Shown: positions 16,838 to 34,616 of the stretch, piece by piece
Layout: each line of letters opens with the position of its first letter
How positions within the stretch are numbered: position 1 is the stretch's first letter
Assembly: GCF_003443875.1 (NCBI RefSeq)
Contig: NZ_CP027482.1
Location: forward strand, 2,418,001 to 2,482,000
Length of the DNA stretch: 64,000 nt
Direction of reading: 5' to 3'
From: Aeromicrobium sp. A1-2
Lineage (GTDB): Bacteria > Actinomycetota > Actinomycetes > Propionibacteriales > Nocardioidaceae
Position numbers and translations under genes: made by a program
The notes under the pieces: generated by a model
Told to the model about the DNA's origin: nothing
Databases searched by the model: none
The model's input: only the letters and a program-made list of their open reading frames with translations

Positions 16838-19207
16838 TCAGCGGTTCTTCCACTGCGGCGTGCGCTTCTCGGCGAAGGCCATGACGCCCTCGAGCGTGTC
16901 CTCGCTGACCAGGAGCTGGTCCATCGCGTCGGTCTCCTTCCGAGCGGCGGCCACGTCGTCCGCGACGCCGCGCGTCTGCTCGATGACCTCCAGCGACAGC
17001 CGCACCGAGGTCGGTGACACCGCCACGATCTCGGCGGCGAGCTCACGTGCCGCAGCGAGCGCGCCGCCGTCCGGCACAACCCGGCTGACCAGCCCGAGAC
17101 GGAGCGCTTCCGCCGCGGGGATGGCTCGACCCGTGAGGATCATGTCGTGCGCGATCTTCGTCGGGATCGCCCTGGGCAGTCGCACCACGCCACCCGCCGC
17201 CGCGAACAGGCCAACTTTGACCTCGGGCAGGGCAAACCGGGCGGACTCGTCGGCCACCGCGAGTTGACAGGCCAGGACGATCTCGAACCCTCCGCCCATC
17301 GCAGCACCGTTGACCGCCGCGATGACAGGCTTGTGCATGCCCTCCCGGGAGGTCAGACCGCCGAAACCGCTGCTGGGGAACCAGGGGAATCCGCCACCCT
17401 CCGTCGTCGTGGCGGTCAGGTCATTGCCGGCGCAGAAGGCGTCGTCGCCCGCGCCCGTGATGATCGCGACCCAGAGTTCCGGATCTGCGAGGTACGCATC
17501 GAAGATGCCATCGAGCTCGACGTGCGCGGCGGCGTGCAGGGCATTGCGCACCTGCGGCCGTTGCAGCGTCACCTCGAGGATGTGGCCATCGCGGCGTACT
17601 GCGACGTGCTCGTAGTCCTCACGCAGGCCCGTCGCAGGGCGAGGCAGCAGTTCGTCCATCCGCTCCGGGGTCAGGGTCACCCGGTTGCCGTAGCCGAACG
17701 ACCGGGCGTATATCCGCGCGCCGATCGGCTCAGCGGCGCCGGTCAGGACCGCCACGAGATCGTCGTCGCCGGCCACAGTCGTGGCCAGAAACCGCCTGCC
17801 GTCGAGGCGTCCGACGACGATCCCGGTCGCGCCGGCCCGGGCGTGCTGCACCGTGTACGTCTCGATGATCGCCCAGCCGTCCGCCGCAGGCACCGAAGGG
17901 GCGGACTCCGGGACATCCAGCGTTTGCTGCAGCGCTGCGTTGTCGACCTTCGGCCACTCTGTCGGGGTAGTCGCGTAGATCCCCGCGGAGTACTTCGACA
18001 GGATCCCGCCGTTGGCGCCGACCAGGCCATACGTCCCCGGATCGCGACGGACCCGGTTCACGATCTCTGCGATCGCGTGCATCGAGTAGTTGTTGCCCGC
18101 GCCGCCGAAGAACGGCAGCCCGCCTGTGACGGTCAGGCCACGTGGATCATCGGCCGCGAGCCCCAGACCGTCGCAGACCGCGGACACCGCGATCGGGTAG
18201 CAGCTGTAGAGGTCGAGGTGCGCAAGGTCGCCCATGCCGATCCCGGCGACCTCGAGCGCATGCGTCACGGCCAGGACCGCGGCCGGGCTCGCCCCGAGGT
18301 CCGGGCGGTCGATGATCGAGCGCTCGGCCGTGTCGGCTCGCCCGTGCACGAAGGTCCACCGGTCCTCTACCACACCGAGCCGGCGGGCGGCCCCGACCGA
18401 CATCATGAGCACGGCAGCACCCTGGTTGACCTGGTCACGGGCGATCACGAAGCGCGGGAACGGATCGGCGACCATGCGGTTGCGGTCCGTGATCGTCATG
18501 AGCTCATCGGCGGTGCGGCTGGTCGGTGCCGCCGCAAGGGGATTGACTGCCGCCACATCGGTGAATGGCGCGAACAGCTCGCCCATCGTGTGGGCGTACG
18601 CCTCGCGGTCCAGCCCGAGGGCTGCTCGCCGGGCGTGCTCCAGCAGGGCGTACTGGCTCGTCGCGTCGGTGAGCCCGTGGCGCACCTGCGGGAGGGTCAC
18701 GATGCCGCGCAACCCATAGCCACGGTCCTCGACCGTCCCGCCCGGGTCCTCGGAGAAGTCCGGCGCGCCCTCGGAGCCGGCCAGGTGGCGAGCCGTCGAG
18801 ATCGCCTCGGAGCCGGCGAGGAGCACGACCTCGGCCCGGCCGGCGGCGATCTCGTCACCGAGCTCTGAGACGAGGTGCTGCGGACCCTGCCCACCGGTGA
18901 CCTCGAGGATCGCCCTCGCCGGGTCCGCACCGATCGCCCGGGCGATGGATCGCGCGACATTGGTCGAGCGACCCAGTGGCGCGTGGCCGATGGGGGTGGA
19001 GATCTCGAACTGCCGGATCGCGGCGATCGTGTCGATCGCGGCAGCGATCCCGGTGCCGGCGGCGTCGGCGAGGGCGTTCGCCGCGGCCCGGGCCGCGAGA
19101 TCGACCGCCGACATGCCGCGGTAGTCAGGGTCGTTGACCTGTTCGGCGCACTGGCCCACTCCGACGATGACGGGCGTACGAGGGTCCAGACCTGCGAGAG
19201 AAGGCAT
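16838..19207 (-). CDS. Fusion protein: thiolase-like (TLP1-type) domain plus enoyl-CoA hydratase
   Basis: 789 residues in one uninterrupted frame. Residues 1 to about 430 are a thiolase-like fold (TPVIVGVGQCAEQ, VLLAGSEAIST, GGLPFFGGAGNNYSMHAIAE), and about 440-510 form an added beta domain like that of mycobacterial thiolase-like protein type 1. The canonical nucleophile Cys position reads EVTGGQGPQ, so normal thiolysis is doubtful. Residues about 533-789 are a crotonase: AFCAGNDL, NGAAMGGGFE with Glu642 and ALPEVKVGLF with Glu662, both hydratase Glu residues present. It probably acts on CoA thioesters in beta-oxidation. ATG 19207 is chosen from the promoter box at 19215. A TetR operator overlaps that promoter. 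Confidence 0.88.
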   Translation of the reverse strand: MPSLAGLDPRTPVIVGVGQCAEQVNDPDYRGMSAVDLAARAAANALADAAGTGIAAAIDTIAAIRQFEISTPIGHAPLGRSTNVARSIARAIGADPARAILEVTGGQGPQHLVSELGDEIAAGRAEVVLLAGSEAISTARHLAGSEGAPDFSEDPGGTVEDRGYGLRGIVTLPQVRHGLTDATSQYALLEHARRAALGLDREAYAHTMGELFAPFTDVAAVNPLAAAPTSRTADELMTITDRNRMVADPFPRFVIARDQVNQGAAVLMMSVGAARRLGVVEDRWTFVHGRADTAERSIIDRPDLGASPAAVLAVTHALEVAGIGMGDLAHLDLYSCYPIAVSAVCDGLGLAADDPRGLTVTGGLPFFGGAGNNYSMHAIAEIVNRVRRDPGTYGLVGANGGILSKYSAGIYATTPTEWPKVDNAALQQTLDVPESAPSVPAADGWAIIETYTVQHARAGATGIVVGRLDGRRFLATTVAGDDDLVAVLTGAAEPIGARIYARSFGYGNRVTLTPERMDELLPRPATGLREDYEHVAVRRDGHILEVTLQRPQVRNALHAAAHVELDGIFDAYLADPELWVAIITGAGDDAFCAGNDLTATTTEGGGFPWFPSSGFGGLTSREGMHKPVIAAVNGAAMGGGFEIVLACQLAVADESARFALPEVKVGLFAAAGGVVRLPRAIPTKIAHDMILTGRAIPAAEALRLGLVSRVVPDGGALAAARELAAEIVAVSPTSVRLSLEVIEQTRGVADDVAAARKETDAMDQLLVSEDTLEGVMAFAEKRTPQWKNR

Positions 19208-19220: not shown

Positions 19221-19241
19221 CTGACGGTTACCGTTCAGTAT
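19218..19241. promoter_or_regulatory. TetR-type operator between the fusion gene and tetR
   Basis: A dyad ATACTGA...TTCAGTAT with a perfect inner ACGGT-T-ACCGT sits in the 47-bp divergent gap. The left arm lacks one base relative to the right. It overlaps the -10 box of the fusion gene and lies just upstream of the tetR ribosome binding site, so one bound dimer could repress both genes. Confidence 0.65.
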
Positions 19242-19254
19242 CAGGGAGAGGTCA

Positions 19255-19875
19255 ATGGCACACGGCGCAACGCTGGGACGTCCCCGCGACCCCGGGATGG
19301 AGCACCGGGTCGAGCGCGCGGCCTGTCGGGTCTACGGCCGGCAGGGATGGGCCGGGTTCAGTATCGACGCGGTGGCCCGCGAGGCAGGGGTCGGCAAGGC
19401 ATCGATCTACCTGCGGTGGAGTGACAAGAAGTCCCTGCTCACCGATGCTCTCGTCGCCACGCTGATCCGCGTCGACGAGGTCGACAGCGGATCGCTGCGC
19501 GGAGATCTCGAGACCTTGGCGCGGCACCACGTCGGCTACTACGTCGGCGACCTCAAGAATGCGGCACTGCGGATGACGACGGAGGCTCCGATGACACCCG
19601 AGCTGCGACCGACGTGGGAGGCGTGGCGCGAGTCCCAGGTCCGTACGGCGCGGGCGACGGTACGCCGCGGAATCGCCCGCGGCGAGCTCGCTGCCGACGC
19701 ATCGGTCACCCTGCTCCTGGACACCCTCTTCGGTGCGGCGCTGATGCACGCGCTGGTCACGCCCGACGAGCTGTCGCTGCACAGCGAGTCCGACATCGAC
19801 GACTACGCCTGCGCGCTGGCCGACTTCGTCCTAGCCGCCGCATCGCTACCAGCGCGGGTGAATCGCCTCACGTAA
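19255..19875 (+). CDS. TetR/AcrR family transcriptional regulator
   Basis: 206 residues. The helix-turn-helix reads GWAGFSIDAVAREAGVGKAS followed by IYLRWSDKKSLLTDAL, a typical TetR recognition region. The ligand domain follows (about 75-200; PF16859-like TetR_C in feel). ATG 19255 is preceded by GGGAGAGG. It is divergent from the thiolase/hydratase fusion gene with an operator between, so a CoA-thioester-responsive repressor of that gene is the simplest reading. The last 30 nt overlap the convergent aldo/keto reductase gene. Confidence 0.9.
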   Translation: MAHGATLGRPRDPGMEHRVERAACRVYGRQGWAGFSIDAVAREAGVGKASIYLRWSDKKSLLTDALVATLIRVDEVDSGSLRGDLETLARHHVGYYVGDLKNAALRMTTEAPMTPELRPTWEAWRESQVRTARATVRRGIARGELAADASVTLLLDTLFGAALMHALVTPDELSLHSESDIDDYACALADFVLAAASLPARVNRLT

Positions 19876-21246: not shown

Positions 21247-22482
21247 TCAGCCGCGCGGAGCCAGCCGCTGGAGCTGGGTCACATGGCCGGGCTCGAGCTC
21301 GGCAACGCTGGTGACTCCCAGGAGGCGCATCGTGCGCTCGATGTCCTTGGTCAGGATCTCGATGGTCCGGTCGACGCCGCGGCGGCCGCCAGCCATCAGC
21401 CCGTAGAGGTACGCGCGGCCGATCAGCGTGAAGTCCGCCCCCCTCGCCAGCGCCGCGACGATGTCCTGGCCCGACATGATCCCGGTGTCCAGATGGATCT
21501 CGACCGAGTCGCCGACCGCCTGCTTGACGTCCGGCAGGAGATGGAACGGGATGGGTGCCCGGTCGAGCTGGCGGCCGCCATGATTGGACAGCAGCACTGC
21601 GTCCACGCCCATCTCTGCGAGCTTGACCGCGTCGGGAACACTCTGGACGCCCTTGACGATGACCTTGCCGTGCCACTGGTCCTTGATCCAGGCCAGGTCG
21701 TCGAACGTGACGGTGGGGTCGAACATCGTGTCCAGCAGCTCGGCCACCGTCCCGGACCACGTGTCGAGCGAGGCGAACGCCAGCGGCTCGGTCGTCAGGA
21801 AGTTGAACCACCACGCGGGCCGCGGGATCGCGTTGAGCACGGTCCGCGGTGACAGCGTCGGCGGGATCGTCATGCCGTTGCGGACATCGCGCAGCCGCGC
21901 ACCGGCGACCGGCACGTCCACCGTGACGAGCAACGTGTCGAAGCCGGCCTTGGCGGCGCGGTCGACCAGCGCCATCGACCGCTCCCGGTCCTTCCACATG
22001 TAGAGCTGGAACCAGTTGCGGCCGTTCGGCGCCGAAGCCGCGACATCCTCGATCGCGGTCGTGGCCATCGTGGACAACGAGTACGGGATGCCGGCCGCCT
22101 CGGCAGCAGTCGCTCCGGCAATCTCACCCTCGGACTGCATCATCCGGGTGAACCCGGTCGGCGCGATGCCGAACGGGAGGGCCGAGCGCACCCCCAGCAC
22201 CTCGACCGACGTGTCCACGACCGACACGTCGCGCAGGATCGCCGGGTGGAACGTGATGTCCTCGAATGCGTGGCGGGCGCGGGCCAGCGACAACTCGGCG
22301 TCCGCGGCACCGTCGGTGTAGTCGAAGGCCGCCCTGGGGGTGCGTCGCTTGGCGATCGTCCGCAGGTCGTCGATCGTGAGCGCCTGGCCGAGCCGGCGGC
22401 GGGTCGGGTTGAAGGTCGGGGTCTTGAACTTCAGCAGCGGCAGGAAGTCCCGTGGACGGGGGAAGCGGCGGCGCTGGGCCAT
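21247..22482 (-). CDS. lldD: L-lactate dehydrogenase (quinone), FMN-dependent LldD
   Basis: 411 residues of the FMN-dependent alpha-hydroxy acid dehydrogenase family. [48 protein letters not shown] and [10 protein letters not shown] with the catalytic His-Gly-Gly-Arg are present, and DTGIMSGQD ends the barrel. As I recall, it resembles mycobacterial LldD2 almost throughout. It oxidises L-lactate to pyruvate and feeds electrons to menaquinone at the membrane. ATG 22482 follows GAAAGGA; the longer frame to 22644 overlaps the upstream gene. It lies 17 nt after the 2-hydroxyacid dehydrogenase gene, in one operon. Confidence 0.93.
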
Positions 22483-29430: not shown

Positions 29431-29547
29431 GTCCGGCGACGTCCTACTCTCCCACACAGTCTCCCGTGCAGTACCATCGGCGCTGAAAGGCTTAACTTCC
29501 GGGTTCGGAATGTTACCGGGTGTTTCCCTTTCGCCATGGTCGCCGAA
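29431..29547 (-). rRNA. rrf: 5S ribosomal RNA
   Basis: About 117 nt on the minus strand, beginning TTCGGCGACCATGGCGAAAG and including ACATTCCGAACCCGGAAG and GGTACTGCACGGGAGACTGT, the conserved 5S helices and loops. The ends pair (TTCGGCGAC with GTCGCCGGA). Confidence 0.95.
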
Positions 29548-29654
29548 ACTCTATTGAGATATCAACAAAACCTTGGAGCCCTTGCGGGCTTTCCGGTTCC
29601 CGAAACATATCTCGGGAACCTCACAGTGGACGCGGTGTACATCTTTGTAAGAAA

Positions 29655-34616
<4,962 letters not shown>

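What the first reader, a model, noticed from the sequence alone, without database searches (positions are those of the whole stretch)
16838..19207. Thiolase-like protein fused to an enoyl-CoA hydratase
One open frame joins a TLP1-type thiolase-like module, which lacks the usual nucleophile Cys (EVTGGQGPQ at that place), to a crotonase with both hydratase glutamates (642 and 662). Known multifunctional beta-oxidation proteins fuse hydratase to hydroxyacyl-CoA dehydrogenase, not to thiolase. The thiolase-like part may serve as a substrate-holding domain for the hydratase. A dedicated TetR and operator lie next to it.
Basis: partly seen in the sequence, partly recalled or inferred. Interest (0 to 1): 0.7.

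Follow-up and report, generated by a model that had tools for sequence, protein, structure and literature searches.

The report
Fused hydratase and probable C–C-splitting aldolase
One bacterial protein joins an enzyme that adds water to a fat-like molecule to a long-puzzling "broken thiolase" that carries the active-site residues of enzymes that then cut the molecule in two, which suggests a two-step cutting machine in one chain and a job for a protein family that has had none since 2012.

Summary
The fusion is real: one uninterrupted 789-aa frame (16838-19207, minus strand) joins a TLP1 thiolase-like module, its small OB-barrel domain and a complete crotonase. It is no sequencing artefact: about 80 loci in some 36 genera, in several phyla, hold the same chain. 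"Never described" is wrong for databases but, as far as I could search, right for function.

The "substrate-holding domain" idea is not supported. The thiolase half lacks the nucleophilic Cys but keeps, invariant in 82/82 fusions, the Tyr and Cys (Y334-S-C336) that are the catalytic pair of the bile-acid retro-aldolase Sal, plus Gly106, Tyr186 and Arg244 at Sal's Gly89, Tyr165 and Arg216. The OB domain's best structural matches outside TLP1 include the DUF35 domain of the Ltp2 aldolase complex (tied with other OB folds). Neighbouring genes encode CoA activation, acyl-CoA dehydrogenases and aldehyde dehydrogenase. TLP1 and crotonase also occur as overlapping separate genes in both orders.

Best reading: a bifunctional enoyl-CoA hydratase/retro-aldolase for beta-hydroxyacyl-CoAs that cannot be oxidised to 3-keto, a one-chain counterpart of Shy-Sal and ChsH1-ChsH2-Ltp2. 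The activity is inferred, not shown; Sal's three Gln residues are not conserved. The TetR and a palindrome unique in the genome are confirmed.

The parts
16838..19207 (-). Fused gene, 789 aa plus stop: TLP1 thiolase-like + OB-barrel domain + crotonase
   Evidence: AF2 model pLDDT 91.2, pTM 0.86
17954..19189 (-). Thiolase-like module, residues 7-418 (proposed retro-aldolase)
   Evidence: NF006105 756 bits; Z 52.0 to MsTLP1 4egv, 32.2 to TbSLP, 31.5 to CtSal 9myr, 31.3 to Ltp2 6ok1
18890..18895 (-). Gly105-Gly106 at the lost nucleophile; equals Gly88-Gly89 of CtSal
   Evidence: alignment, 81/82 and 82/82; MsTLP1 Gly102 by structure
18200..18208 (-). Tyr334-Ser335-Cys336, proposed catalytic pair; equals Tyr302/Cys304 of CtSal
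   Evidence: Tyr 82/82, Cys 82/82; YSCF replaces NEAF in the MsTLP1 crystal structure
18065..18124 (-). Residues 362-381 GGLPFFGGAGNNYSMHAIAE, near-invariant active-site loop replacing thiolase GHP
17675..17950 (-). TLP1_add_C, OB-like barrel (residues 420-511)
   Evidence: PF18313; AF2 pLDDT 95.7; VIA Z 9.2 to 4egv, then 6.6 to ChsH2 DUF35 (6ok1_B) and 6.3 to 6esq_F, tied with other OB folds
17609..17674 (-). Linker, residues 512-533, least conserved segment
16841..17608 (-). Crotonase (enoyl-CoA hydratase) module, residues 534-789
   Evidence: PF00378 190 bits; VIA Z 33.9 to Rv0222/EchA1 6ldz
17282..17284 (-). Glu642, first hydratase glutamate
   Evidence: 80/82
17222..17224 (-). Glu662, second hydratase glutamate
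   Evidence: 81/82
19221..19238 (-). Operator-like palindrome CTGAACGGTAACCGTCAG, directly before TATAGT and the start codon
   Evidence: unique in genome; core recurs beside the same TetR in seven other loci
19255..19872 (+). Divergent TetR regulator (start possibly 19297)
   Evidence: PF00440, PF16859; homologues near 27/80 fused loci vs 0/60 control stretches

Best explanation
A bifunctional enoyl-CoA hydratase/retro-aldolase. The crotonase half (E642, E662) adds water to an alpha,beta-enoyl-CoA. The thiolase-fold half, which cannot do thiolysis, cuts the resulting beta-hydroxyacyl-CoA by retro-aldol chemistry: Tyr334 takes the proton of the beta-hydroxyl, the Calpha-Cbeta bond breaks, Cys336 protonates the enolate, and an acyl-CoA plus an aldehyde or ketone leave. 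The OB domain probably ties the two halves together as DUF35 does in Shy-Sal and ChsH1-ChsH2-Ltp2. Likely substrates are enoyl-CoAs whose beta-carbon cannot become a keto group (branched or ring carbon). Shown: architecture, residue conservation, gene context. Inferred: the activity, substrate class and role of the OB domain.
For: Tyr and Cys of the Sal pair, 82/82 each; also Gly89->Gly106 82/82, Tyr165->Tyr186 82/82, Arg216->Arg244 81/82. In CtSal, C304A/S/H gave no detectable activity, Y302F nearly none, and Y165F/R216A/Y305F were impaired (PMC12329534). Y-[SA]-C-[FY]-P kept in 75 of 76 TLP1s at down to about 32% identity. OB domain matches the DUF35 of Ltp2-ChsH2 first after its own family, though tied. 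Neighbours within ~6 kb, 80 fused vs 60 evenly spaced actinobacterial control stretches: CoA activation 31 vs 2, acyl-CoA dehydrogenase 28 vs 4, ALDH 14 vs 0 (families). Unfused TLP1 and crotonase genes adjoin in both orders, two with start/stop overlap, and in Massilia as ligase-TLP1-crotonase with overlaps. In the beta-valine cluster a TLP1 gene overlaps BvaB2, a crotonase-fold enzyme shown to make 3-methylcrotonyl-CoA, whose hydration product is a tertiary alcohol (PMC4619459). Retro-aldol cleavage is said to pull an unfavourable hydration (PMC11321319).
Against: No activity has been shown for any TLP1; MsTLP1 was tested only as a thiolase. Sal's Gln161, Gln347 and Gln352 (proposed oxyanion hole and Cys activators) are Ala/Pro, Leu and Gly here. 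CtSal and Ltp2 are dimers, MsTLP1 a monomer. Overall identity to Sal is about 20%, and the fold alone does not separate aldolases from thiolases. The add_C domain has no zinc-finger cysteines. The nine window-type standalone TLP1 loci have no crotonase nearby. The window's own neighbourhood shows only TetR, aldo-keto reductase and FMN dehydrogenase. Enrichment counts are not corrected for kinship.
Confidence: 0.62

Rival explanations
1. The thiolase-like half is a non-catalytic substrate-holding or oligomerisation scaffold for the hydratase.
For: MsTLP1 shows no thiolase activity and has a CoA groove (PMC3406046).
Against: The near-invariant residues sit in the catalytic loops and reproduce an aldolase pair, 82/82; TLP1s without a crotonase keep them too.
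Confidence: 0.14
2. The thiolase-like half catalyses another CoA reaction with the Tyr/Cys pair, such as decarboxylation or a nucleophile-free Claisen reaction.
For: TbSLP, also Y-x-C, decarboxylates malonyl-CoA very weakly; the GNNYSMHA loop and the loss of Sal's Gln residues suggest a different pocket.
Against: CtSal, with the same pair, lacks that activity; decarboxylation does not explain the steady pairing with a hydratase.
Confidence: 0.16
3. The crotonase half is a beta-aminoacyl-CoA ammonia lyase (BvaB2-like) and the pair works on beta-amino acids.
For: BvaB2, encoded next to a TLP1, deaminates beta-valinyl-CoA in vitro and shares the closest solved relative 3r0o.
Against: Acyl-CoA dehydrogenases near many fused loci make the enoyl-CoA oxidatively, so no amino group is needed.
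Confidence: 0.08

Closest known systems
Sal-Shy bile-acid side-chain aldolase-hydratase, Comamonas testosteroni (9MYR; PMC12329534, PMC11321319)
   Same: Thiolase fold with Gly for Cys, Tyr-x-Cys pair, OB-fold domain, paired with an enoyl-CoA hydratase
   Different: Separate chains; MaoC (hot-dog) hydratase; zinc-finger DUF35; three Gln residues not conserved; about 20% identity
ChsH1-ChsH2-Ltp2 (6OK1)
   Same: Hydratase-DUF35-aldolase assembly; acyl-CoA dehydrogenase upstream in pathway
   Different: YDHF/Tyr344 chemistry, heteromeric MaoC hydratase, separate chains. The window genome has its own Ltp2 homologue elsewhere, 71% identical to 6ok1
MsTLP1, Mycobacterium smegmatis (4EGV; PMC3406046)
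   Same: Same family, 57% identity over the N-terminal part, same YSCF/GGL/NGG motifs
   Different: Stops after the OB domain, no hydratase; function unknown
BvaB2 and its neighbour ORF11, beta-valine cluster (PMC4619459)
   Same: TLP1 and crotonase encoded by overlapping genes
   Different: Two genes; ORF11 function unassigned; BvaB2 assayed as ammonia lyase
Beta-oxidation multifunctional proteins (FadB, MFE1/2) - from general knowledge
   Same: Hydratase fused to a second enzyme of the same pathway
   Different: Second enzyme is 3-hydroxyacyl-CoA dehydrogenase, not a thiolase-fold protein

Membership tests
TLP1 (thiolase-like protein type 1) | Full-length family profile and C-terminal TLP1_add_C domain above curated cut-offs | tested here: met
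   NF006105 756 vs 683 bits; PF18313 43 vs 26 bits
TLP1 (thiolase-like protein type 1) | YSCF, GGL and NGG motifs, Gly at the nucleophile position | tested here: met
   YSCY/F 82/82, GGL 82/82, NGG about 80/82, Gly106 82/82
TLP1 (thiolase-like protein type 1) | Monomeric in solution | not testable with these tools
   crotonases are usually trimers or hexamers (general knowledge), so the fusion may not be monomeric
Thiolase (EC 2.3.1.9/16) | Nucleophilic Cys, Asn/His of NEAF/HDAF, His of GHP, Cys of CxG | tested here: not met
   Gly106, Tyr334, Gly369, ANGG; structural assignment in MsTLP1
Sal/Ltp2 retro-aldolases | Catalytic Tyr plus Cys (Sal type) with Gly at the lost Cys | tested here: met
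   82/82 each
Sal/Ltp2 retro-aldolases | Gln161/Gln347/Gln352 (Sal) or the second Tyr, Tyr344 (Ltp2) | tested here: not met
   Ala/Pro, Leu, Gly in TLP1; Tyr374 lies nearby but does not align with Tyr344
Sal/Ltp2 retro-aldolases | DUF35 partner: zinc finger plus OB fold | tested here: inconclusive
   OB-like domain in the chain but no Cys in residues 420-524, so no zinc finger
Sal/Ltp2 retro-aldolases | Retro-aldol activity | not testable with these tools
   needs an assay
Crotonase / enoyl-CoA hydratase | Fold and both catalytic Glu | tested here: met
Specific hydratase equivalogs (EchA19, DpgD, CaiD) | Score above curated cut-off | tested here: not met
   best are EchA19 260 vs 400 and DpgD 227 vs 400 bits
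Beta-oxidation multifunctional enzyme | Hydratase fused to 3-hydroxyacyl-CoA dehydrogenase | tested here: not met
   no such domain in the Pfam scan

The most novel reading that the evidence does not exclude
The whole TLP1 family is a class of CoA-dependent retro-aldolases outside steroid catabolism, and TLP1-crotonase fusions are single-chain hydratase-lyases that let diverse bacteria bypass thiolysis on beta-branched or alicyclic acyl-CoAs (for example 3-methylcrotonyl-CoA to acetone plus acetyl-CoA).
Probability: 0.45. Interest if true: 0.75.

Novelty: new variant of a known kind. Interest (0 to 1): 0.62.

Why it matters
TLP1 has had a crystal structure and no function since 2012. If the reading holds, the family gets a reaction, the label "acetyl-CoA acetyltransferase" on these genes is wrong, and hydratase-aldolase coupling, known from steroid side chains, becomes a wider route for acyl-CoAs that ordinary beta-oxidation cannot cut. 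The fused form is a single-chain test object and a possible C-C bond-forming biocatalyst in reverse.

Tried and rejected
Sequencing error at the junction: rejected by some 80 homologous fusions and a uniform codon pattern. Ordinary thiolase: rejected by residues. Two independent fusions: the TLP1 tree shows a second fused clade (about 35-40% identical in the thiolase part) among standalones, and its crotonase halves group with a single crotonase, but a common clade of both fused groups with the nested mycobacterial standalones is not rejected (AU p 0.26); only "all fused and nothing else as one clade" is rejected (p 1e-6). So independence is not claimed. Fold ranking as functional evidence: rejected, since thiolases and aldolases score alike; add_C's DUF35 matches tie with other OB folds. 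Literature searches for a described TLP1-hydratase fusion found none in the held open-access library. One family-scan call failed on wrong coordinates and was repeated.

Full report
What is there. The frame 16838-19207 (minus) codes for 789 residues with no stop or frame break, and third-position GC stays at 0.82-0.96 throughout. Residues 7-512 are a full TLP1 (NF006105, 756 bits, cut-off 683), ending in its own C-terminal domain (PF18313, residues 426-501); residues 541-788 are a crotonase. The AlphaFold2 model (47 homologues) has pLDDT 91.2 and pTM 0.86. Its first 510 residues match the crystal structure of M. smegmatis TLP1 (4egv, Z 52.0, rmsd 1.2 over 449 residues) and its last 256 match mycobacterial hydratases (6ldz, Z 33.9).

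How common it is. A scan of 85,000 species genomes returned the maximum of 80 loci, 45-82% identical, in Actinomycetota (Aeromicrobium, Nocardia, Prauserella, Gordonia, Frankia, Streptomyces and others), Burkholderia, Bradyrhizobium, Spongiibacter, an Opitutia MAG and a Lewinella MAG; 81 of the ORFs collected run through both halves. Among 25 genomes of the window's genus, 12 hold a TLP1 at E <= 1e-60, one each: four of the window type of fusion (G000, G011-G013), six of a second, more distant fusion type (35-40% identity in the thiolase part), two standalone. In the whole phylum the add_C domain occurs in 45 of 396 genomes, mostly in unfused proteins, so fusion is a minority state.

The thiolase half is probably not a passive holder. 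Aligned to solved relatives, it has Gly106 at the thiolase nucleophile and Gly369 at the catalytic His, so no thiolysis; the MsTLP1 authors assigned the same changes from their structure and measured no thiolase activity (PMC3406046). But position by position it agrees with Sal, the bile-acid side-chain retro-aldolase: Tyr302 = Tyr334 (82/82), Cys304 = Cys336 (82/82), Gly89 = Gly106 (82/82), Tyr165 = Tyr186 (82/82), Arg216 = Arg244 (81/82). In Sal, Cys304 variants had no detectable activity, Y302F almost none, and Y165F, Y305F and R216A were impaired (PMC12329534). The same paper proposed aldolase activity for the trypanosome protein TbSLP on this basis and does not mention TLP1. The motif survives in 75 of 76 TLP1 sequences down to about 32% identity. 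What does not agree: Sal's Gln161, Gln347 and Gln352; instead TLP1 has an invariant GNNYSMHA stretch.

The OB domain. Folded alone (pLDDT 95.7), the add_C domain matches, after its own family (Z 9.2), the DUF35 domain of the Ltp2-ChsH2 aldolase complex (6ok1_B, Z 6.6) and the DUF35 of an archaeal thiolase/HMG-CoA synthase complex (6esq_F, Z 6.3); ordinary OB folds follow at 5.7-6.1, so this is a tie that shows an OB fold and only hints at DUF35. It has no cysteines, hence no zinc finger. In ChsH2 and Shy the hydratase is covalently joined to a DUF35 that grips the aldolase. Here the order aldolase - OB - hydratase gives the same connectivity in one chain, with a crotonase in place of a MaoC hydratase.

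Gene context. With a home-made gene caller and BLAST, 80 fused loci were compared with 60 evenly spaced stretches of other actinobacterial genomes. CoA-activating enzymes (tandem family-III CoA-transferase or ADP-forming ligase) lie near 31/80 vs 2/60, acyl-CoA dehydrogenases (often a tandem or paired type) 28/80 vs 4/60, aldehyde dehydrogenases 14/80 vs 0/60 (families). The loci are related to one another, so the p-values are optimistic, but the hits spread over 14, 17 and 10 genera or higher-rank names for dehydrogenase, activation and ALDH respectively. The implied order - activation, dehydrogenation, hydration, C-C cleavage, aldehyde oxidation - is that of the steroid side-chain pathway. 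The window's own locus does not carry these genes.

Pairing without fusion. Separate TLP1 and crotonase genes adjoin in G063 (31-nt gap), in G295 (TLP1 stop overlapping crotonase start, with acyl-CoA dehydrogenase and CoA-transferase nearby) and, in reverse order with overlap, in G172; and on a Massilia putida plasmid as ADP-forming ligase - TLP1 - crotonase with 4-nt overlaps. In the published beta-valine cluster of Pseudomonas SBV1 the coordinates show ORF11 (closest solved relative 4EGV) overlapping BvaB2, a crotonase-fold enzyme that makes 3-methylcrotonyl-CoA; ORF11 was left without a function (PMC4619459). Hydrating 3-methylcrotonyl-CoA gives a tertiary alcohol that cannot be oxidised to a 3-keto acid, the situation in which a retro-aldolase replaces dehydrogenase plus thiolase (inference). 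Not every TLP1 is paired: nine standalone relatives of the window type, eight of them mycobacterial-type, have no crotonase within several kilobases; the tree nests those eight inside the fused clade, which suggests loss of the hydratase. Whether fusion arose once or twice is open.

Regulation. The gene is divergent from a TetR. The palindrome between them, CTGAACGGTAACCGTCAG, abuts TATAGT seven bases before the start codon, is the only such site in the genome, and its core recurs beside the same TetR in Aeromicrobium (two), Actinoplanes, Paractinoplanes, a Streptosporangiales and a Streptosporangiaceae MAG and Nocardia. A local, dedicated switch is well supported; its inducer is unknown.

Verdict. 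Observation confirmed; "holding domain" replaced by "probable second enzyme". The hydratase half is secure at the residue level; the aldolase half is a specific inference that a simple assay can settle.

Noticed in passing
29431-34616 (-): rRNA operon: 16S 33100-34616, 23S 29650-32747, 5S 29431-29547; explains the GC dip at 28-36 kb.
   Followed up: yes
L260 (G000:C1 645000-662000): The window genome carries an Ltp2 aldolase homologue 71% identical to 6ok1 next to a tandem acyl-CoA dehydrogenase, so it probably also degrades steroid side chains, far from the fused gene.
   Followed up: partly
L160-L165, L245: A second, distant TLP1-crotonase fusion clade; in the sampled genomes of the window's genus each has one fusion type or the other, never both.
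   Followed up: partly
L103, L106 (Burkholderia): Fusion lies beside P450, ferredoxin reductase, FadL/TodX-like porin, CoA-transferase, a MaoC/FAS1-like dehydratase and a true thiolase, suggesting breakdown of a hydrophobic compound.
   Followed up: no
L041, L042, L045, L049, L054 and others (Prauserella): An MBL-fold hydrolase (Strvi_7410 type) sits directly before the fusion in about 15 loci; role unknown.
   Followed up: no
21250-22482 (-): FMN-dependent dehydrogenase related to lactate dehydrogenase and MftD, below both cut-offs.
   Followed up: no
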